A DNA stretch of 64,000 nt from Halichondria panicea (lineage: Eukaryota; Porifera; Demospongiae; Suberitida; Halichondriidae), in contig NC_087389.1 of assembly GCF_963675165.1 (NCBI RefSeq), positions 5,182,120 through 5,246,119 on the forward strand, read 5' to 3'. Position 1 is the first letter of the stretch. Each line of letters starts with the position of its first letter. The translations under genes were made by a program, and so were the position numbers. Below, piece after piece: positions 11,140-63,815 of this stretch. The notes under the pieces were generated by a model. It did not search any database, had not been told where the DNA came from, and saw only the letters and a list, made by a program, of their open reading frames with translations.

Positions 11140-13688
11140 ATGTCAGAACACGTCACCAATGGCAACCTCGTCACAGTGTCTCGTAACCTTGGTAATGGGG
11201 TCAAGAATGCAATCAAACGTCTCTCAGAGGCCAGTAGTGGAGGGGATTCCCCTGACCAATCACAGTGGAGCTCTCCCGACCACGTTCTACAAAATCAAAG
11301 AATTCATCCGCAAATAAGTATTGAACATTTTGATCATGATACGGAAACAAGTTCCAAAGAGAGCACACCATGTCCGGAACCACTATCCCCTAGGGAGCAG
11401 CCAAATGTCAAAAACAAAAAATGCAAATCACATTCATTACCTGCGGGATTGTTACTCGACGAAAGCTTCCGAAATAGTGATGAAATGATCTCCGACCTTT
11501 CCGACGATTTAGAGACCACTATAGAACTCGACTCATCGCTAGATTTCGACAAAGACCATCTCGCTGTAACTATAGTGACATCACCAACAGTCAAACGGCT
11601 GAGCCCAGTGTTGAAGAAACCGCTAAAGCACACAGACAGTGGCAATAGTACGCACTCAATCATGGAGTCCGATATGAGCTCCGATGAAGAGAACTATTTG
11701 GGAGGCAACAAAGAAGGTATGGACGATGAAGTGTTTAACGAGGCAGGGTATGCCAAGATTTTCGACACTGATTTGAAACTGATTGCATGGGCTGATAAAG
11801 AATTTGTGCCGTCGTGTCAAGCACTGTTGCAGTATTGCTCGGCGGGCTGCGAAAAATCGGAACAGATTAAAACCCAATTAAAGGACTTGTCCAACAGGAT
11901 TATCTATTTCAGTAGCGAGCAACAACGACTGAGTGTGCAGCTACGATCACTGAACCTCCGCGGTGGTATCACAGCTTCTCTGAGCACCGACCAATTCAAC
12001 CGATTCAGCACAATGACAGAGAAATCATCGTCGAGTGGCCACACCCACCAACCCACCTCCCCCGACTCCTCCGGGTCCCCTTCTGTGAGCGGACGCGAGA
12101 GCGGAGAATCACAGTACGATCATCGTAACTACGCCGTCAAAGTTCTGAGGAGCGTATCACAAGAACTCATTGAACCGTTGCTAAGAGACGCGGCAGACTT
12201 TGGATTTGCAGCCGAGCTGTACCAAGCAATCGTACAAGCTATACAGAAAATAGCGTGGAAAGTAGAAGCGTGTCTTTCGTTCAATGACCCCACGAAACAA
12301 TTTCTTATTTATCACAATATCTTCACGACCTCCGTGACGGAGAGAGTTCAGGGTATGATGATTCGTGCCGCCCCCTCCACTAATCACACCAGGCACAGCA
12401 ATAACGCCTCAGGCTCTATATCGGAGGAGACTTCTTCGCAGCTGCAGCAGAGCAACTCCATAGAAACGATCGACCCACAGAGAGTCATAAAGAGAACTCC
12501 CAGCGGACGTATTCGACCGAGCGGAACCGTGTTCAACTCTGACACCATACCGGATGATTTCAAAGTGGGCGTGGACAACGGCGATACCAGCCCCATACCC
12601 ACCATCCACGAGTCCACCAAGGGAACACCCACTGCTAACTCTGCCGAAACCACACCCAAAGTGTTTCGATCGAGAACGGCAACAGCTGGAGACACAGATT
12701 CTATGGGCTCCTGGAAGAGCAGGCCTCTCTCTTCCAAATACGGTAGTAATCCTTTCCTCGACGAATATGGTTTTCCTATGCCAGTGGACTCCGCTCCCGA
12801 TTATTTACGGCCGACAAAACCACGGCGAACAACTGTATCGTTGTCTCGTAACGAAGTCACTAGTCTCGGGCTTACCGTGGCCAAACGTGTGGACGAGACC
12901 ATCATCTCAGACATGTCCAGTCCGTTGCTAAGGGAACGTCCCTCTAATAACAAGGAGGAGGAACAAAGAGTGAGAGAAAGACTACACGCAAAACTGACCG
13001 AAACGTTTAAAAAAATCCGAGAAGCCACTCCCACTCCACAATGTCCCTACAATCGCAACAAAAGTGCTAGTATGTCCGATATCCTTGACGATGCCCCGCC
13101 CACCTTACTGAGACGCCATGACAGCGAGACTCGGAAACAATCCCTGGACGTAGAAGATGCTGTTAGTACGGGAGGGTATTCCCCCACCTTCACGCGTAGT
13201 TTCATCACCCTCCCCCCTCAGACATGTGATGATTGGGTGTATCTAAACGAGCCAGCTGTGGACGTTCGTGTGTCTAGGGACAGTCCAACGAAGAAAGTAA
13301 AGAGCCCTCCTAAATCGGGCAAAGAGAAGAAAGTAAAGAAGCAACGCAAAGGAAGTGAGAAGAAAGAAACTGAAAAGAAGAAGTCTGCTGACAACAAGAT
13401 CAGTACGTCTGGTCGCTTCACTGTGTCCCTGCGTAAGACTGCACAAGCCCTGAGGCGTATGTCCACATCTGTGCCAAAGTCCCGGGACAGGTTAGTATAC
13501 ATGTACATATCCACAATGTATCTGTACAAAGCTTATACTAAAAATACTGTGTTGTGTAGGTGTATTCTTGTACTCATGTGATAGACTTGTGTTTGGTATA
13601 ATTGTATTGTGTTGAACTGACACCACACACAGGCAGTAATCTTGTTATAACAGTATGCACATACAACACACAACACTCCCCACACCCG

Positions 13689-13723
<35 letters not shown>

Positions 13724-16700
13724 CATGACGACAGCAGTGGAGGTGGGATCAATGGAAATGCTCTCTGAAACTAGCAAGGATCCGAGCAGTCGACCAATCA
13801 GCTCGCTCAGTGAGCCCGCCTCCCCTATAACAAAGTCTCGTGTACACACAATGCCAAGCAACAAACGCAAGATCACCACTTTTTTCAAAAGTGGGAAACC
13901 ACAGTCCAAGAGTTTCAGTAAAGCCGACACCCTCGCACGAAAGCGCAAAGTTCAGAAGTCAGGGTTCTTAGCGGGTTACCAAGACCCCGGCTCGGGTGTT
14001 GGGTTCGGAGAGTCCATTGACCTTCAGTACTCGGAGCAAGTGGACCTGGAGTTATCAGCCGTACAGGGGGAGGGTAAGTGGGTGTGGTCAGGCTGTAATG
14101 TGCCGAAAAATTTTAGAGCAGTGGTGTCAATCCTTAATCGCAATTCAGCACACAAATTTGTATACTATTTGTTTTTCTGTATTCCACACCAGTTTTGAGT
14201 TTTTTGAGGACTTGCATGTATAAAACGATCTGTGTGTTTGTGGATACATCGTGTAGTTTATTCCCCCGCCCCCTCTCAGCTGAGAAGGAGCTATTGGTCA
14301 CGGTGGGTGTGGCCGGGAAACAGCCGACAAAGGGGAAAAAGCTCTCTACAAGTGAGTAAAACATTGGTCACCTGTAGCTTGGCTTAGAATTTTTTGCTGT
14401 GTTCAACCCTTTTCATCCCTTCACTTGAAATATACATTTAAAAGCAAAAAGCAGAAATTCTATTCTAATTGACCGCAAGTGTGTAGACTAGTGGCAGAGC
14501 CTATTATGGTGTGGTACACTGTACATGTATGCTAGCTGGTACGTGTGTTTTCTCTAATAACGTGCTTGCTGAGAGGTGAAAAGAGTTGTACTACTGGTCC
14601 CTCTCTGAAAATGATTTGGGAAATAGCCACAACTCTGCATAATACGTATTATCAATGTGTCATACATGTAGTCATTGTATGTCCTCGTTATCTGTAGGCA
14701 ATGGATGGTTCGAGATCACCGTGACAACCAACATCAAACAGGTAACATCTTCCTCGTACTATCCCCATCACTTCCTGTCACGTGATCCCCCCCTCACATA
14801 GTTTTAGTTTTATAGTGTGAGATGGCCCAAATGATTACTTTAATTGCCATACGAGATTGAAATTGAACCCACGGAAATTAAGTTATGGCGGCTGAAAGAA
14901 ACTATTGAGTTGAACATCTTTCAAACGGCCATAACTTTAGTAATTCTTTTATAATTATTAGTCGTGATGATTTGTGTCATAATATCGGAGCAGAGTGTTA
15001 TGCTTTTCTGAAAGCTTAGAAAGAGACCTTTCAATGTTAATGAAAGCTTAGAGACCTTTTAAATGACACGTTTAAATCCAAAATTTCATTGATACCATGA
15101 TTTGTCATTACATTTTTTCGGCTTGGACCGTGGGTTATAATAATCCTTGGTATGGCCAATTTAGTAAAATAATAATTGTTTATGAAATTTGATAACACCA
15201 TTTGAAAGGTCTCTTTCTAAGCTTTCAGAAAAGCATAAATTTATTACTCTCTTCTCTGATATCAAGTTTTTCGTTGTTTACGTATATCACACAAATCATC
15301 AGGACTAGTATTATTATGCCTCGGTGCGCGTGCGCAAGCGAGGCATACGGTAGTGTGTTTGTGTGTAGACTATTTCAGCTGCTCAAGGATCAATGAAGTG
15401 CAAGTAAGAGTTTCTGTAGGCTTCTAGTCATGTTTTCTTGGCATGCTATTTGTGGATTTGCAAAATAAAGCTTTGTTCTCGAGTTATGCCTAGTTTTGCT
15501 TACTTGGAATGCCATTGCAGCCTTTTCAGAAGAGTCCGTAGCAAAACTTGTTCACCGAGTGTTGCTACTCTACTTAGTAGTTAGCTCTGATATCAAGTTT
15601 TTCGTTGTTTACGTATATCACACAAATCTTTTTCAAGTAATCGTTTTTAACTAACAATCATGGTCGATCATTACCCACTATTTGAGTTTCCCTGTGATTG
15701 CATGCAATCATAATCAATGTGTGTATAAAAGCTAACTATTAGTAGTTTTATGTTATGTAGCTTTGGCACCTCCACCGAGGCATCAGCACCCGCGGTGCTT
15801 TCATTATATCAGTGTCTTAAATACCTGGGTAACAGGATATAATTATTGTGATATAGTTGACTATTGCTGACGTGTGATTACCCCCCTTCCCCTCACATAG
15901 TTTGGTCGGAATCACTACACCATCCTGAGAACGGTCAAACAAGCTCAAAACCTGTTTGACGAGTTGCAGACCTCCCACTGTAAGTAAACCCACGCACGCA
16001 ATACATCAGTAGCGAGTCAAATCCATTGTCTTCAAACATTGTGTTAACATGACGGTGTATTGTACATGTGGCTATCTTAGGTGGTGTTTACCGTATCTTC
16101 TTTAATGACTAATAATAACAGTTGTGTTTGAGCTTATCTACATGTACATGTACGTGACTTCCTTGGGTGACCTGTTAGCCTGTCGTTTGAAAAGGTGGCT
16201 TCAAGAATGATCTAAGACTGTTAATAGCCACATTGCAACAGACCACCCCCTGCTACCCCCCACATAGTTACAGATCACACCCCCTATCCCCCCCACAGCT
16301 CTCAAGTTCCCCGAGCGTCCAGACAAGAAGAAGGACTCTCGTAAGCAGAGTCAGCAAATTGAGGACTTCCTGAGGTTTGTGTCTGGCAGCTCCCACCTCC
16401 GAGAGAGCACCCCCCTCGTCATGTTCCTCATGCCAGATGACCAGTTCGGGACTTTCACTGACAACGGCTCAGAAGTTGTGAGTGTGTGTGTGTTGTGTGA
16501 GTGGGGGTGGGGGTGGGGGTGGGTGCATGGGAGGTTGTGAGTATGTTTGATGAGAGGTATACAAGGAATGAAGTGGGAAAAGATTGTCAGTTGCACACCG
16601 TCCCAAATCTAACATATGGAAAAAGCTTTCCTACATGTAATTTGTATTGTTTCAACGATGGTTAGAATCTAGCATTCAAATTGGTACACTCAGTTTTTTG

Positions 16701-19003
16701 ATTCAGTAAAACTCGATGTGCATGTGTGTGTGTGTGTGTGTGTGTGTGCGTGCGTGCGTGAATTTGTTTTAACAATAATGGAGAAGCATCATCATAATTG
16801 TGTCCACTATTGAATCTGTTGGTTATATTAACAGCTGCTTTGTTTGGCTTTCGTATCTACACACACTGTTGCTATGATAACTGGAGGCAAGTGTGTGATT
16901 TTGTCTCGTCTGATTCACTCTTAATTTGCCCGGTCATATTTCTATAGCAGCACTAATGCAGCTGTCACTGTACACACCTTGTTCCATATTCACAGAATGT
17001 CACTCTTTCGGTGATAAGTACAGCTGTAGTTAATAGCCACCCCAATAACGTGTTGCGTAGTAACCACTTAATAAAGTCTATAAAGGTCATGGTTATGCAG
17101 AACTGTACTGGCATTCAAGATCTTAGTACATTTGTAGTATTTCTAGCATTAGCCTATCTTCTTATAACTAACAGCGAGAGTGTAAGTGTCCTAGCTCCAC
17201 TGCATACTTAGTCTAGCTAGTACAGTGTGCATAGATTCATCATTATATTATGCAGTGCTATACCCAGTGGTGCCTATTTTCAATCTAACTTTGCCTCTTT
17301 TATAGCCTATTGTGGTAAACTAGGCCTATGAGAGGTGGTTTATTATTTGCCTAGAGGTACCAACCACCATAATAGCTGCTCTATGTTTATTTTACAGTTT
17401 AGTAGTTGCATGCTAGTGCTGGTCAAAATACTGTACGTGTATGCACATGTAGCTAACTCTCTCCCACCATCCTCAGAACTTTGAACTCATCATGACCTTC
17501 TATACTCCGGACCACTATTCAGGCCCTCCTGGTAGTCATAGAAACGTGGAGGAGGTGCTCCCCGAGGACACACCCAGTGAGTCACTACACACATGCTCAC
17601 ACACACACACACCCACACACACACACACACACACACCCACACCCACACACACACACACACACACACACCATTGTCAAATTGCAAGTCAATATTTTACCTT
17701 TTTACGTAATTAACAGTTTTCGAGTAGGTTACATTGTAATGTTAACTTTACTGTAGGTTTACTAATGTACATGCAGTGAAGCCTGCATCATATTATTGCA
17801 GCTACAAGAGTGCCCAAGTGCTGTATACACTATAAGATCACTGACCACTTTTCACACCTGTCACAGATTCATCGCCGCCGGCCCGCCCACGGAAAGGGGG
17901 CACTCTAAAGCGAGGGACGATGAGGGTTATAAAGAACGAAGAGGAGGGAGCCACATTCATCATCAGAGAGGGTACGTCTGTGTGTGTGGGCAGGGGGGCT
18001 TGCACTGGGAAATGATTTTGAAGTGTAGGAGATTTTTTTTTTTTTTTTTTTTTTTTATAATAATTCTGCAAAATGCATGGATACACTAGTAGCATATTAC
18101 GCTAACCTAATGTGCGCCCTGTATATATTACTTACAATAGCGAGTACAAATTAAAAATAAAGACTAATATTATACTAATGCTCATTGCGTGTGTAGCAAG
18201 TATTTAAGTTGGGTCTATTGAGGAACTTGGATGTGAAACCTGTCTCTATAGTGATGGCTCTTGGGCAGGCCAACAGTGGCTGTAATAAAGAGGTGACCTG
18301 CTAACACAGGTACAAACACATGCTATGGAGACTTTGGGGGCCATTAACCTGGCTGTATTATAGAGGGTGGCCTGCTAATAGACAGCTACAGGTTGTAGGT
18401 GTACATGTAGCAACAAGTTGCATATTATGGTAAGGGCAGCTTGTACTTGTACTCTCTCACACAACACTACTATCTGTTAGAGTGGTGCTGCTCTGAGTGC
18501 ACTCATGTTGTTCCTGTTATCAGTACACACACCACCCACCCCACACACACACACAGAGGAACAAGATGCGCTGATAGTGGCATGTGAGGATGATCGCTAT
18601 GTTGTGGTGGCCGGGACCTTTGAGAAGCTTGTGGAGCAGCTGGCAGGGGACGAGAAGCCAGGCAAGTGCACTCATCAGCTTCGGATAGTTATTTGAGTGT
18701 CTGTGAAGGCTGTTACAGAATTGTCTGCACCCAAAAATAATATGTTCATACATTATTAGTTAATTAGCCTAGCACACAAGGGTGCTACATGTAGCTATTA
18801 AATGGTTGCTACAAGAGTGAGAAAAAGAGCTTTGCAAAGCTGTAAAGCTGTATATAGTGCCAGAAGCCGTTATCTTAATATTGACAATAACATGAATTAA
18901 TTTACAGACCAGCGCTTTGTGAGCACTCTGTTGATTGGATATCGACACTTTGCCACTCCAGTGGAGCTCCTCACTGGACTACTCAGAAGATATCCTAACC
19001 CAC

Positions 19004-19050
<47 letters not shown>

Positions 19051-22000
19051 GTACACCATTGCTAAAATAGCCTTAGGATTTTATAATGTATGTTCCTTGA
19101 CCTTTTAATGCACATTCCATTTGGAGCTTCCCCCCAACGCCACTGATGAGGAGATAGTGTACGCTGAGAAGTGGAGATACATGATACAACTCAGGTGTGT
19201 GGGTGTGTGGGTGTGTGGTGTGGGTGTGTGCAGTAGTGGGCCGGGCTACTAATAACTGTGTGTATTAATTATGTTAGTATGTGTATATTGTATGTAGGTA
19301 ATTTGATGTAATATGTACATGTACATGTATGGTGGGTGGGTCACCCTGTAAGCTAGCCACCCTCTATAGTACAGCCATGTACATGTATGGTGGGTGGGTC
19401 GCCCTATAAGCTAGCCACCCTCTATAGTACAGCCATGTACATGTATGGTGGGTCACCCTGTAAACTAGCCACTCTCTATAATACAGCCATGTATGGAGGT
19501 CACCCTGTAAGCTAGCCACCCTCTATAGTACAGCCATGTACATGTATGGTGGGTCGCCCTGTAAGCTAGCCACCCTCTATAGTACAGCCATGTACATGTA
19601 TGGTGGGTCACCCTGTAAGCTAGCCACTCTCTATAATACAGCCATGTACATGTATGGAGGTCACCCTGTAAGCTAGCCACCCTCTATAATACAGCCATGT
19701 ACATGTATAGAGGTCACCCTGTAAGCTAGCCACCCTCTATAATACAGCCATGTACATGTATGGAGGTCACCCTGTAAGCTAGCCACCCTCTATAATACAG
19801 CCATGTACATGTATGGTGGGTCGCCCTGTAAGCTAGCCACTCTCTATAATACAGCCATGTACATGTATGGTGGGTCGCCCTGTAAGCTAGCCACTCTCTA
19901 TAATACAGCCATGTACATGTATGGTGGTCACCCTGTAAGCTAGCCACCCTCTATAATACAGCCATGTACATGTATAGAGGTCACCCTGTAAGCTAGCCAC
20001 CCTCTATAATACAGCCATGTACATGTATGGTGGTCACCCTGTAAGCTAGCCACCCTCTATAATACAGCCATGTACATGTATGGTGGTCACCCTGTAAGCT
20101 AGCCACCCTCTATAATACAGCCATGTACATGTATGGTGGTCGCCCTGTAAGCTAGCCACTCTCTATAATACAGCCATGTACATGTACAATGGTGGGTCGC
20201 CCTGTAAGCTAGCCACTCTCTATAATACAGCCATGTACATGTATGGTGGTCACCCTGTAAGCTAGCCACCCTCTATAGTACAGCCATGTACATGTATGGT
20301 GGGTGGGTCGCCCTGTAAGCTAGCCACCCTCTATAATACAGCCATGTACATGTATGGTGGGTCGCCCTGTAAGCTAGCCACCCTCTATAATACAGCCATG
20401 TACATGTATGGTGGGTCGCCCTGTAAGCTAGCCACCCTCTATAATACAGCCATGTACATGTATGGTGGGTCGCCCTGTAAGCTAGCCACCCTCTATAATA
20501 CAGCCATGTACATGTATGGTGGTCACCCTGTAAGCTAGCCACCCTCTATAATACAGCCATGTACATGTATGGTGGTCACCCTGTAAGCTAGCCACCCTCT
20601 ATAATACAGCCATGTACATGTATGGTGGTCACCCTGTAAGCTAGCCACCCTCTATAATACAGCCATGTACATGTATGGTGGTCACCCTGTAAGCTAGCCA
20701 CCCTCTATAATACAGCCAGGTTCTATAGCATGTGTTTGGTCTGCCCAAGGGCCAACACTATAAACAAGTTTCACTGTATGTATACATTTATCCAATGTTG
20801 TGCTCTCTCCTTACACATTCTATTTCAATATTACCTACAGAGTTTTGGATATTTTGACGTACTGGATAAAGAAATGTTGGCCGGACTTCTACAGACACCA
20901 GGAGATGGTGAGTGCTACAGCTGATATTATAGTCACTAATGCGTTCACTCTAACCACACCCCCTCCGCAGCTGGATCTGACCAATCAGTTTATAGGCGAT
21001 CTCAAGTCAGCCAAGGACCCAAACTTCAACCTAGCCGGTACTAACCTTGAGAAAACAGTGGCTGAAAAGGTGCGTGAGTGTGTGGGTATGTGTGTGAGTG
21101 TTTGCGCACCTGTGTTAGCGGACCAATGTGTGAGAGGGGGGGGGGGTGATTATTTATCTCAAATCATTTGGGACAATCTTTTGTACTTATAGTTGGTATG
21201 AATCATCACACTAACCCATCATCTCCCCACCCCTCCAGTCTGAGGCCAGTCCTCGTATCTACAAGCTTGGCACACCTGGCACACCATGCACATCCAGAAC
21301 GCCTACACGCACACCCTCCACACCGACCACACCCACACGTACTCCCTCCACACCCACGTCACCGCAAGGAGGGACAGTACTTCCCACGCCCCCTTCCACA
21401 CCTTCCACTCGCGGGGAATCAAGTACCCCCTCCCCTCTTGTAGGTGGGAGGAGTCGCAGTCGTCAGCCAGTGGACATCAGCACCCTCACAGCTATACAAC
21501 TAGCCAGACAGGTACGCATACTGATAGCATGAACGTCACTTTTAACAAGCATGATCTTTACCGTATTGTATGACACTTTTTGAATGATAAGTCTATAATA
21601 TCAATTCTGTATAGCTAGGTCCCTTCCAAATGGGCTGTTTTAAAAGTTAACTTTTGAGTACTCATAATTTGGGTTAGGTATTAAGGATTCTGCATTTTTA
21701 CCATTTATTTTTTTCGGTATAGCTGACTTTAATAGAGCTGGAGTTTCTGAAGCTCGTCACTACCCACGAGTTAGCCGTCTACACCTGGGAGCAAAACACG
21801 CCAGGTGAGATATAACACGTTCTCCATATGCTACTGTTTCATTACCTCTCTCTCTCACACACACGTATAGAGAATAAACCGTACAGAAAAAATTTGGACA
21901 ACTTCATAGCAAGATTCAATAAAGTAAGTGCCTATAGTTTTGAATTAACTACTGGCAAGAAATAGCCTCCATCTCATGTTGTGTGCACAGAATCAATTAC

Positions 22001-24811
22001 CTCTCCTCCCTAGGGGATTCTAACTCCTCCCCATTACCCTCTCTTAACCCCTCCCCTCCCCTCCCTAACCCCACCCTTTTCCCTCTCCTCAGGTGAGCTA
22101 CTGGGTGGCGAGTGAGATATGTTCAGTGAAGGATGCAAAGTCGAGAGCAGCTCTCATTGAGAAGTTCATTGAAATAGCAAAGGTATAGTCAATATCTTGT
22201 GTTTCTGAATCAGTGTGTCTCCATCTTGTTTGATTCGTGCAAGGTTGTGTTCTCAAAATCAGAGATGTGCCCACACTAGTCGGTGGTGGTTGGTACTATA
22301 TACCACTAGACAAACTAGAGCAACTTAAGTGCAAACACTCGGCTGGTGATGTGATAATACGATCTATACATGTATATAGAAACCAGAGGAGTAAATGAAA
22401 TGCATTTATAGTCATGTATGACTGAGCTATAGCACAGCAATAAAACTAAACCTAGACCTAATTTAAGTCAGCACTCCTGGTATGTTCTGGCTAAGATAAA
22501 TAACCACAATATCATATTCTAGCTTTCTACTTTAGTGACCCTTTTCCATTGTTTCTGGTACAGGATCACTTCAGCTGCAGATAGTGTCTCGAATAAAGGC
22601 CGCGTGTAGTTAGGCTGTTAGCTAGCCCTACAGCCGACGTGCAAGTTTAGCATTTGCTCGCTTTTATTAACTACTTAAAACTAATAACTTGTTGTGTGAA
22701 GGCTATCCATGCTGTAAACGCAGGGCTATGGAGTAGACTCACATGTTATAACAAACACACAAACCAACAGACTAGTACTATATAATTCGTGGCCGCCCAC
22801 GCACCTTGGGCCACCTAGTTCAACACATAAAAGAGGCAATGTGTGTGAGATTGACGATTGAAAATAGCCACTTCTTAGAAAATTCTGGCCACATCACTAC
22901 TCTAAATTAATTGTCCCAAACATTTTTCTCGAAGTATTTCTGTGACTATCCAGTAATTGTACACACGCACGCACTGTAGCAATGTCAAGAGCATAGGAAC
23001 TTCAATACGACCGTCTCCTTGGTAACGGGCCTCTCGCTGGCAGCTGTTAGGAGACTAAAAAAGAGTTGGGAGGTGAGAATTTTATTTTTATTCTCATCAT
23101 CATTATTGATGATTAATGATTATTTTCCACAGTTTGTAGGAGAAAAATCAGTTAAAGCCTATCAGAAGTTGACGTTAGTTACATCACCCACGAGTAACCA
23201 TGGCAACTACAGGAAGTTGTTGTCGTCCGTACACAGAAGAGAAAGTGGTATCCCCTACGGCTGCATTCCTTATTTCGGTAATTAATCAAGTCACTATAAT
23301 CTATGTCAAAATGTTATAAGTAAGATACCTTTCAAATTAGGTGTTTAAATCCTCACTTTTGTCGCGACCATAAATTGTCATTTTTTGACTATTTTGGTCA
23401 TTTTTTGGCCATAGGATTTAATATACATGTAGTACATGTACATGTACAATGTATAGGTATAACTGTAAACACTGTTACAGTAATTAATTAGTCCAAAGTT
23501 GGGGCTCATAACTTGAGTTTAGAGTATTGAAACAATATCTCATTGCAGAGGAGGTCGGACATCACTTGAACTTTCACTAATTATGACCTTTTAATGACAT
23601 TCCAGGCCAAATTGCTTTTCGTTTTTGCTGACTCAGCAGTAGAACATGATTGGATCTAGGCGGATCTAGCTAGTATGGCTATTATGTACTGATAGGGTTA
23701 GGTCCAGTAACCATCATAGACACCAAACACAACTAGCTGTCAACAGATTCAGCGACAGAAACCGTGCAGAAGTATTGTCTCATGAATCAGTCGCCCTCTA
23801 TAACATAGACTCGTGATTAGGCCGCCCAACTTTTAGAGGGCGGCTAAAATAGAGACTAGCAGAGAAGTACAGTAGACGCTACTGCTGAGTCAGCAAAAAC
23901 GAAAAGCAATTTGGCCTGGAATGTCATTAAAAGGTCATAATTAGTGAAAGTTCAAGTGATGTCCGACTGCCTCTTGTATTGAATGGTGTGTTTCATGTCA
24001 GGTGTATTCCCAGGGAAAGTCCCTTTGTTATGTTGTCCTCCATGATCTTAATGTTGCTTATAGATTTTAGATTTGGGAAAGTGCAATAAGCAAACTGTGT
24101 TTTCGATAGTTTTGTATTGAGAAAGTGTATGTGGCTTTTTTTAATTCTTCTGTTCTCGTCCATTGCACAGGTGTGTTTGTTAGGGACCTCGTATTCTTCA
24201 ACGATGGAAACGCTAAGAAACTAAAAAATGGGCTCATTAATTTCTCTAAACTGCGGACAATGGTGTTGAAGGTGAGGGGGCGGGACAGCTGTGCGGGTAC
24301 ATGTACCACCTGTAGCTGTGTAGTAGTCTGTTGATCTGTATACTTCTGTAATAATCATGAGTTTTGTTTGTGTTGCTAGGAATTAGTGTGTTTGTCTGAC
24401 CAGTTACTTAGCTACTGTACATGAAGCTTCTTCTCAACCCAAATTGTTTAGTTCGTACAATTAAACACAATTATTTAAATGCGCTTGTTTTAACTCCGAC
24501 TCTCTATTATTGTGTTCCTTAGTTTGAGGAGCTGAAGAGATATCAAAGGTCCAAGTACTTCTTCCCACCCGAGGACAGAACAAGAGATTTTTGTAAAAAC
24601 CTCTGGAGCTTATCCGAATCAGAGTGAGTGGGCGTGTGTGTGCGTATGTGCGGGGGTGTATGTGTTTGCGTGTGTCACTGCAACTTGTGTAAAGTCTCCA
24701 CTCAAAATTAAGAGATCTTTATCTCCCACTTCCCATTTCTTCTCTAGTTTGTACGAGGTCTCGTTGCAAGTAGAGCCAAGAGAAGCTCCTCCCATTGAGA
24801 CCGACGTATAG
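11140..24811 (+). CDS. Ras-family guanine nucleotide exchange factor (PX-like + REM + CDC25), 1571 aa
   Basis: It catalyses GDP/GTP exchange on a Ras-type GTPase. Coding exons: 11140-13490, 13724-14073, 14280-14351, 14698-14741, 15901-15979, 16299-16477, 17477-17576, 17867-17971, 18557-18661, 18908-18989, 19114-19194, 20841-20907, 20971-21069, 21239-21511, 21723-21804, 21871-21923, 22093-22182, 22980-23072, 23133-23277, 24171-24271, 24523-24623, 24748-24811 (4716 nt; every junction in phase). Residues 1-900 are mostly low complexity with two helical blocks (about 203-270 and 326-410) and a Lys-rich patch (~717-749). Residues ~901-1010 look like a PX domain, ~1094-1205 a REM domain (GTFEKLVEQL ... 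RVLDILTYWI), then a TP-rich linker (~1240-1320). The CDC25 domain follows (QLTLIELEFL, RFNKVSYWVA, FNTTVSLVTGLS, CIPYFGVFVRDL, LYEVSLQVEPRE). It ends E-T-D-V, a class I PDZ ligand. The Ras subfamily target is not clear; Rap- or Ras-type exchange is possible. Confidence 0.88.
14742..15900. repeat. RasGEF intron with nested repeat element
   Basis: This 1.16-kb intron contains inverted-repeat sequence at about 14995-15060 and 15207-15235 (AAAGCTTAGAAAGAGACCTTTCA against its complement). A 44-bp direct repeat (CTCTGATATCAAGTTTTTCG...) occurs at about 15255-15298 and 15585-15629. Between the two lies a block starting TTATGCCTCGGTGCGCGTGC with a short GCCTCG/CGAGGC hairpin. No gene is seen. Confidence 0.55.
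16478..17476. other. RasGEF intron (999 bp)
   Basis: The intron starts with GTGAGTGTGTGTG and contains a second GT run near 16723-16760. I see no gene, RNA or clear transposon in it. Confidence 0.4.
17590..17670. repeat. CA-rich microsatellite
   Basis: A run of CACACA with CCCACA interruptions, in the RasGEF intron that follows the exon ending at 17576. The conceptual ORFs on both strands here (TH and CV repeats) are artefacts. Confidence 0.85.
18255..18375. repeat. Dispersed ~75-bp repeat monomer in RasGEF intron
   Basis: It contains GTGGCTGTAATAAAGAGGTG, CTAACACAGGTACAAACACATG, CCATTAACCTGGCTG and TATTATAGAGGGTGGCC. These are the same words as at 9250-9475, in the same orientation. Confidence 0.7.
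18990..19113 (+). other. U12-type AT-AC intron in the REM-coding region
   Basis: The intron begins ATATCCTAAC directly after the AGAAG exon end and finishes TTAATGCAC. It carries TTCCTTGAC (19093-19101), matching the U12 branch-point consensus TTCCTTRAC, with the branch A 13 nt from the 3' end. Joining 18989 to 19114 yields R-F-H-L-E-L-P-P in the expected REM position and keeps frame; no GT-AG alternative does both. It also contains a CA microsatellite (about 19011-19044). Confidence 0.85.
19315..20725. repeat. ~54-bp tandem satellite array, about 25 copies
   Basis: Each unit reads roughly CATGTACATGTATGGTGGGTC, CCCTGTAAGCTAGCC, ACCCTCTATAATACAGC, with length 48-60 bp from variation in the GGTGGGT part. 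It lies wholly in the RasGEF intron 19195-20840. The 3' flank continues as the dispersed repeat (CATGTGTTTGG ... ACAAGTTTCACTG, to ~20778), so the array appears to be an amplified part of that element. Repetitive ORFs on either strand are by-products. Confidence 0.9.
22183..22979. repeat. RasGEF intron with a dispersed repeat copy at 22690-22830
   Basis: The segment TTGTTGTGTGAAGGCT, CATGCTGTAAACGCAG and GGCCGCCCACGC recurs at 34974-35100 with roughly 80 percent identity by eye. The rest of the 797-bp intron shows no gene. Confidence 0.55.
23547..23974. mobile_element. MITE-like element with ~95-bp inverted repeats
   Basis: Arms 23547-23642 and 23879-23974 are near-perfect reverse complements (starting GAGGTCGGACATCACTTG and ending CAAGTGATGTCCGAC). 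They flank a ~236-bp centre with no coding potential. It sits in the RasGEF intron 23278-24170 and is presumably a non-autonomous DNA transposon. A target duplication is not clear. Confidence 0.7.
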
Positions 24812-63743: not shown

Positions 63744-63815
63744 TGGAGAAACGGGGGTTCGAACCCCGGGCCTCTCGCATGCAAAGCGAGCGCTCTACCA
63801 CTGAGCTACATCCCC
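63744..63815 (-). tRNA. tRNA-Ala (anticodon UGC)
   Basis: The 72-nt minus-strand sequence folds as a cloverleaf. D stem is GCTC/GAGC, anticodon stem CTCGC/GCGAG with loop TTTGCAT, and T arm CGGGG-TTCGAAC-CCCCG. The acceptor GGGGATG pairs with TTTCTCC, including the G3:U70 wobble that identifies alanine. It has one U-U mismatch at 6:67. Box A (TAGCTCAGTGG) and box B (GGTTCGAACC) are intact. A TTTTTT terminator follows within 12 nt (AAAAAA at 63733-63738 on plus). The acceptor mismatch leaves slight doubt about function. Confidence 0.88.

What the first reader, a model, noticed from the sequence alone, without database searches (positions are those of the whole stretch)
18990..19113. U12-type AT-AC intron interrupts the REM domain of the RasGEF gene
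Three independent signals coincide: ATATCC 5' end, a TTCCTTGAC branch motif with its A 13 nt from the end, and a terminal AC. Removing exactly this 124-bp intron restores the expected REM residues and keeps frame through all downstream exons. AT-AC introns are rare and need the minor spliceosome, so this organism should retain it. A CA microsatellite inside such a short minor intron is also unusual.
Basis: partly seen in the sequence, partly recalled or inferred. Interest (0 to 1): 0.75.

Follow-up and report, generated by a model that had tools for sequence, protein, structure and literature searches.

The report
Minor-class AT-AC intron in RasGEF gene
A short stretch interrupting a signalling gene is a genuine but ordinary rare-class intron; the same genome's only found copy of one RNA that should read such introns has a changed reading site, which deserves a closer look.

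Summary
18990-19113 is a 124-nt phase-2 intron (ATATCCTAAC...TTCCTTGAC, branch A 13 nt from the end, AC) in the REM domain of a 22-exon, 1571-aa RasGEF gene. It is the only strict U12 triple in the window; shuffles give 0.04 that short. None of the 10 other open-frame splices found restores REM. Two paralogues carry U2-type introns at the same REM base. Fly Epac and human RAPGEF3 already have an AT-AC U12 intron (PMC2831892). So: a new member of a known kind. The CA repeat is not unusual (5 of 21 introns).

Unexpected: the only U6atac found has GCC where Rfam's consensus has AAG (nt 12-14), facing intron +6 to +8. The 15 U12 introns keep C+6 (15/15) and T+7 (14/15), but T+8 is 6/15; U6atac pairing at +6/+7 would be 0/15.

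The parts
11140..24811 (+). RasGEF gene, 22 coding exons (model built by hand), 1571 aa; 19 GT-AG introns, 1 GC-AG, 1 AT-AC
   Evidence: Pfam RasGEF_N aa 1110-1212, RasGEF aa 1326-1512
18908..18989 (+). exon 10, upstream half of the REM region, ends ...AGA AG|
18990..19113 (+). U12-type AT-AC intron, 124 nt, phase 2
18990..18996 (+). U12-type 5' splice site ATATCCT (continues AAC; +8 and +9 are A, not the consensus T)
19008..19045 (+). CA microsatellite inside the intron
19093..19101 (+). U12-type branch-site motif TTCCTTGAC, branch A at 19100
19112..19113 (+). terminal AC, 3' splice site
19114..19194 (+). exon 11, continues REM (completes the Arg codon, then FHLELPP...)

Best explanation
This is an ordinary U12-dependent (minor-class) spliceosomal intron of the AT-AC subtype, at what looks like an old intron position in the REM domain of a RasGEF gene. 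U11 and U12 first recognise ATATCCT and TTCCTTGAC; U6atac then replaces U11 at the 5' splice site, the A at 19100 attacks the first intron base, and the exons join at 18989/19114, restoring an Arg codon (AG|A). Shown here: sequence signals, frame, domain match, the four snRNA genes, other U12 introns. Inferred: that the RNA is spliced this way in the living organism, and the order of events (textbook mechanism; U6atac replacing U11 is stated in PMC3584512, passage).
For: 5' site, branch site, spacing and terminus coincide (chance 0.04 per window). Exact removal restores REM without a gap against SOS and a 1571-aa frame. U12 108.1 bits, U6atac 102.6, U11 86.2, U4atac 59.6, all over Rfam cut-offs. 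The branch motif pairs with this genome's U12. 14 other U12-type introns with in-frame coding flanks, 11 with a family match across the junction; two of them, L041 and L046, share CCTAA with this 5' site. Two paralogues have an intron at the same base and phase.
Against: No RNA evidence. +8 and +9 are A A, not T T. Pairing of this 5' site with the genome's own U6atac is only 2 of 6 positions at +4 to +9 (4 of 6 with human-type U6atac or with its U11). The one minor-spliceosome protein search found nothing, with silent controls. The AT-AC genome scan as a whole is not above its control (17 against 47); only 2 of its 17 rows stood up as introns.
Confidence: 0.95

Rival explanations
1. The major spliceosome removes a GT-AG intron at 19051-19126 instead, leaving the CA repeat as a Thr-His run in the protein.
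For: It keeps the frame open and is the best of the major-class pairs, 6.8 bits donor plus acceptor.
Against: It inserts [20 protein letters not shown] and drops FHLE in the middle of REM. Every intron of this gene would score at least 7.4 (lowest donor 3.4 plus lowest acceptor 4.0), though that matrix was trained on the same introns. The AT-AC pair keeps the SOS alignment gap-free.
Confidence: 0.02
2. An AT-AC intron removed by the major spliceosome (U2-type AT-AC).
For: Such introns exist in sodium-channel genes (PMC2831892, passage).
Against: Those have G at +5 (same passage); this one has C at +5 and a full U12 branch site 13 nt from the end.
Confidence: 0.02
3. The minor snRNA genes are relics, the minor spliceosome is inactive, and the intron is a fossil in a dead or differently spliced gene.
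For: The only U6atac found has three changed bases in its 5' splice-site-pairing segment.
Against: U4atac-U6atac stems, 26 of the first 29 nt of U6atac, the U12 branch-binding sequence and the U11 5' end are kept. TATA-like boxes lie upstream of all four. U12 introns keep C+6 in 15 of 15, including in ribosomal protein L4 and cullin genes. The RasGEF frame is open over 1571 codons.
Confidence: 0.01

Closest known systems
AT-AC U12-type introns of animals; fly Epac intron 11 of 16 and human RAPGEF3 (PMC2831892, Table 2)
   Same: AT-AC subtype, U12-type, in a RasGEF-family gene
   Different: The window gene shows no cyclic-nucleotide or DEP domain in Pfam; whether the intron sits at the same codon could not be tested
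U2-type introns at the same REM base in paralogues L007 and L010 of this genome
   Same: Same base and phase 2, before the conserved aromatic residue (by eye)
   Different: GT-AG, no U12 branch site near the end; the pattern expected from class conversion
Human / Rfam U6atac (RF00619), for the side finding
   Same: 102.6 bits over full length; U4atac-pairing stems kept
   Different: nt 12-14 GCC instead of AAG, in the segment that pairs with the 5' splice site at +6 to +8 (register recalled)

Membership tests
U12-type (minor) AT-AC intron | 5' splice site ATATCCT(T) | tested here: met
   ATATCCT at 18990; the further T at +8 in the RTATCCTT rule (PMC2846911, passage) is not met: A
U12-type (minor) AT-AC intron | branch site TTCCTTRAY close to the 3' end | tested here: met
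   TTCCTTGAC 19093-19101, A 13 nt from the last base
U12-type (minor) AT-AC intron | AT...AC termini that restore frame and homology exactly | tested here: met
U12-type (minor) AT-AC intron | host genome has U11, U12, U4atac, U6atac | tested here: met
U12-type (minor) AT-AC intron | removed by the minor spliceosome in vivo | not testable with these tools
   no RNA data
U2-type AT-AC intron | G at +5 (PMC2831892, passage) | tested here: not met
   C at +5
RasGEF gene with REM domain | RasGEF_N and RasGEF domains | tested here: met
   72.8 and 193 bits, both over Pfam cut-offs
Epac/RAPGEF3 gene | cyclic-nucleotide-binding and DEP domains before REM (recalled) | tested here: not met
   Pfam lists only RasGEF_N and RasGEF at E up to 0.001 over the 1571-aa model; exons upstream of 11140 were not looked for
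U6atac (RF00619), L002 | score over the family cut-off, pairing with U4atac | tested here: met
   102.6 bits against 33; stems I and II pair with the genome's U4atac
U6atac (RF00619), L002 | AAGGA segment complementary to 5' splice site UCCUU | tested here: not met
   GCCGA at nt 12-16 instead of AAGGA

The most novel reading that the evidence does not exclude
This genome's minor spliceosome works with a U6atac whose 5' splice-site reader is altered (AAG to GCC, nt 12-14). U6atac would pair regularly only with +4 and +5, and with +8 when that is C or T. The 5' splice sites have followed: T at +8 is no longer preferred (T 6, A 5, C 4 of 15) while C+6 and T+7 stay fixed, presumably held by U11. 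That would separate, in nature, what U11 and U6atac each contribute to the U12 5' splice-site consensus, and show that a U6atac helix held to be required in human cells can be shortened.
Probability: 0.5. Interest if true: 0.72.

Novelty: new member of a known kind. Interest (0 to 1): 0.42.

Why it matters
The intron is one more AT-AC intron, useful as a marker of what looks like an old intron position in the REM domain, since two paralogues carry U2-type introns at the same base. The side result matters more. U6atac pairing with the 5' splice site is held to be required for U12 splicing, and Rfam's consensus is conserved there. A genome whose only found U6atac breaks that pairing at +6/+7 while its U12 introns keep C+6 T+7 would be a natural test of which snRNA holds which base of the 5' splice site.

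Tried and rejected
Alternative splicing: 11 open-frame donor/acceptor pairs were found (donors 18960-19109, acceptors up to 19169, at least 40 nt), and only 18990-19113 keeps REM contiguous; under a major-class matrix it ranks 10th of 11, as a minor intron should. ATATCC alone as evidence: weak. CA repeat as a special feature: rejected. U12 triples at the REM site of paralogues: none seen in the roughly 3 kb held for each REM locus except the window itself (L013); motif pairs in L001 and on the other strand of L008 are unrelated. U6atac pairing in another register: a CUAACC/GGUUAG match with the window intron exists, but that U6atac stretch pairs elsewhere as I recall, and I take it as chance. 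A human-like U6atac copy: none within 3 mismatches over 24 bases except this locus, no second copy by DNA search. 5' sites re-matched to the new U6atac, GG at +6/+7: 0 of 13, 0 of 17, 0 of 17 in the three free scans.

Literature: U12-type intron with sponge and minor spliceosome, 9 papers, none on sponge animals by title; minor intron with RasGEF, 0; minor introns with U12-type and Porifera, 0; U6atac with Amphimedon, 0; U6atac with base pairing, divergent, splice site recognition and minor spliceosome, 6 listed, only PMC8034651 and PMC10853781 opened, for passages; U6atac with sponge, 19 papers, 12 listed, none on sponge animals by title. One search was badly framed and says nothing. The sponge terms were a guess; the species was not identified. 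L021-L025 were fetched and not used.

Rows dropped before counting 15 introns: (TATCCTT fixed, 10 rows, control 7) was not used for base counts; the introns it shares with later scans are counted once., 13 rows, 8 kept (dropped: L036, L040 no coding flanks; L038 near-copy of L037; L043 frame unsettled; L048 flank too short). 17 rows, 2 kept (L056, L058); of the dropped, L054/L055 are two near-identical ATATCCTTT copies of unknown nature, also open in frame, and L052 and L064 have CT at +6/+7 without convincing flanks., 17 rows, 4 kept (L072, L074, L075, L079); L077 (GTATCCCTA) unsettled, L069 and L082 without convincing flanks. Which flanks count as coding was my judgement. Adding L038, L043, L048 and L077 would give +8 three more C and one more T.

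Full report
What is there. The stretch 18990-19113 begins ATATCCTAAC, contains TTCCTTGAC at 19093-19101 and ends AC. I rebuilt the gene around it by hand: 22 coding exons from 11140 to 24811, 4716 nt of CDS, one open frame of 1571 aa. Of 21 introns, 19 are GT-AG, one is GC-AG (18662-18907, the intron just upstream) and one is AT-AC. Pfam finds RasGEF_N (REM) at aa 1110-1212 and RasGEF at aa 1326-1512. The junction falls after two bases of the second Arg codon in ELLTGLLRR|FHLELPP. SOS1 and SOS2 align there without a gap, as ELLSLLIERFEIPEP or ELLSLIIERFEIPEP.

Is it more than chance? ATATCC alone says little: 45 hits, 32.6 expected, 3 of 100 shuffles reach 45. The triple (RTATCCT, TTCCTTRAY, matching terminus 8-16 nt after the A) occurs once in the window on both strands; 200 dinucleotide shuffles average 0.235, or 0.04 with length up to 200 nt. 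Enumeration of donor and acceptor pairs that keep the downstream frame open gave 11 candidates; only 18990-19113 leaves REM contiguous. The best GT-AG pair, 19051-19126, scores 6.8 bits, while the gene's own sites start at 3.4 (donor) and 4.0 (acceptor) on a matrix trained on them, and it would put a Thr-His run into REM.

Does the organism have the machinery? The window's assembly (131 Mb, 39 contigs, unnamed) shows one match each at E up to 0.001 for U12 (108.1 bits), U6atac (102.6), U11 (86.2) and U4atac (59.6), all over Rfam's cut-offs. The tool scores only its best candidates, so copy numbers are lower bounds. The U4atac 5' end and the U6atac stem II segment pair at -27.2 kcal/mol, stem I at -14.1. 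A search for one protein family that I recall as specific to the minor spliceosome was uninformative.

Are there other U12 introns? Patterns with the first five bases and the branch site fixed but +6 onwards free were scanned over the genome. GTATC...TTCCTTRAC...YAG with 47-77 nt between gave 13 hits (reversed control 9); 11 had C at +6 and 10 had CT at +6/+7, where equal bases would give 1/4 and 1/16 (P 1e-5 and 2e-10 under independence). A longer bin, 78-108 nt, gave 17 hits (control 11), 7 with C at +6 and 5 with CT. The AT-AC form gave 17 (control 47, so mostly noise), 6 with CT. An earlier scan with TATCCTT fixed gave 10 hits against 7 in its control, so motif counts alone do not prove these introns; the coding flanks do. 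I kept hits whose flanks are open and join in frame: 8, 4 and 2. Eleven of these 14 have a family match across the junction: Sep15/SelM (L039), cullin neddylation (L042), pseudouridine synthase 1 (L044), cullin (L046, below Pfam's cut-off), ribosomal L4 (L047), kinesin (L056, below cut-off), myosin VII (L058), xanthine dehydrogenase (L072), TMEM107 (L074), apyrase (L075) and MATCAP (L079, E 0.068, weak). L037, L041 and L045 rest on open frames: no Pfam family, and no PDB match for L045 and L037; L041 was not compared with the PDB.

Paralogues. Sixteen REM stretches were found in the genome, which I take as 14 loci, as L015 and L020 look like second exons of L008 and L007. Two besides the window gene have an intron at the same base and phase: L007 (RalGDS-like by eye), CTACGAAG|GTATAAAATA...TTTTTCAG|ATTT, and L010, GTCAAAAG|GTACCCTCC...GATTGCAG|GTAC. 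Both are GT-AG, without a U12 branch site at the end. L019 has a donor one or two bases away (not resolved); the other ten read through, several of them only loosely alignable. Positions were set by eye. A shared old position with a U12-to-U2 change in two copies fits the class-conversion model (PMC7367187 and PMC2831892, passages); independent insertion is not excluded.

Known relatives. Section 8 of PMC2831892 (read whole) lists an AT-AC U12 intron in fly Epac (intron 11 of 16), also U12 in human RAPGEF3; PMC2952598 (one passage) lists Epac/RAPGEF3 among fly U12 genes. So an AT-AC intron in a RasGEF-family gene is not new, though I could not test whether it is the same position. PMC10639083, a survey of over 3000 genomes (passages), does not hold the words sponge, Porifera or Amphimedon in its main text; I looked because I guessed a sponge, and the species was not identified.

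The unexpected part. The genome's U6atac reads GUGUUGUAUGAGCCGAGAGAAGG where Rfam's consensus has GUGUUGUAUGAAAGGAGAGAAGG. Human has the same as Rfam, by the antisense oligo in PMC8034651 (passage). In the first 29 positions only nt 12-14 differ, AAG to GCC. DNA search finds no other copy, and a scan for the human-like 24-mer with up to 3 mismatches finds only this locus. By the usual register (recalled), those bases face intron +6, +7 and +8. Across the 15 introns (14 plus the window) +6 is C in 15; +7 T in 14, C in 1; +8 T 6, A 5, C 4; +9 T 6, A 5, C 3, G 1. Among the 11 with family support, +8 is T 4, C 4, A 3. The RTATCCTT rule quoted in PMC2846911 (passage) is met by 5 of 15. Standard pairs at +4 to +9 with this U6atac number 15, 15, 0, 0, 10, 6 of 15; with human-type U6atac, and with the genome's own U11, 15, 15, 15, 14, 6, 6. 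So C+6 and T+7 look held by U11, and T+8 has relaxed where U6atac no longer asks for T alone.

Cautions on that part. The title of Incorvaia and Padgett 1998, seen in a reference list, says this pairing is required in vivo; the paper itself is not held. PMC3584512 (passage) reports that U6atac with its functional domain replaced by that of U6 still supports splicing. That T+8 is strongly preferred in humans is recalled and was not measured here. U11 also faces +8 and +9 and is unchanged, so relaxed +8/+9 need not come from U6atac. The set is small, the patterns fix TATC and TTCCTTRAC, and one assembly was seen without reads: an assembly error or a missing second copy is possible.

Verdict. The intron is ordinary for its class. 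The altered U6atac is the lead worth following.

Noticed in passing
L002 (G000:C17:3379775-3379902, minus): Only U6atac found in the genome has GCC instead of AAG at nt 12-14, the segment that pairs with the U12 5' splice site; U4atac pairing is kept.
   Followed up: partly
upstream of L001, L002, L003, L004 matches (minus strand): All four minor snRNA genes have a TATA-like box (CTATAAA) and a CCACAAA or CCACACA element upstream; ACCACAAATACATGAC is identical before U4atac and U11. From recall, vertebrate U11, U12 and U4atac genes lack a TATA box.
   Followed up: no
window 18662-18907: GC-AG intron (GCAAGT...ACAG) directly upstream of the AT-AC intron, so two rare intron types flank one 82-nt exon.
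   Followed up: no
window 19338-20718: Tandem array in intron 11 of the gene, period 53, 25.8 copies, 93% matches, with a 267-bp higher-order period.
   Followed up: partly
window 23547-23974: Inverted repeat in intron 19: two 96-nt arms, 98% complementary, 236 nt apart, like a small non-autonomous transposon.
   Followed up: partly
window 11140-24811, protein region just before REM: A weak PX-domain match (E 0.019, 15.9 bits, below Pfam's cut-off of 21.6), which would make an unusual PX-REM-RasGEF protein.
   Followed up: partly
L047 (G000:C16:79628-79702, minus): A U12-type GT-AG intron in the ribosomal protein L4 gene, phase 0.
   Followed up: partly
L054 and L055 (G000:C4:5753394 and 5809764): Two near-identical copies 56 kb apart of a perfect AT-AC U12 look-alike (ATATCCTTTCG...TTCCTTAACTATGTCTATAC) with open frames on both sides, nature unknown.
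   Followed up: no
L037 and L038: Near-copies of one U12 intron and its downstream exon on two contigs, GTATCCCTC in one and GTATCCTCT in the other; the upstream exon differs.
   Followed up: no
window 63744-63815, minus: tRNA gene, 66.3 bits.
   Followed up: no
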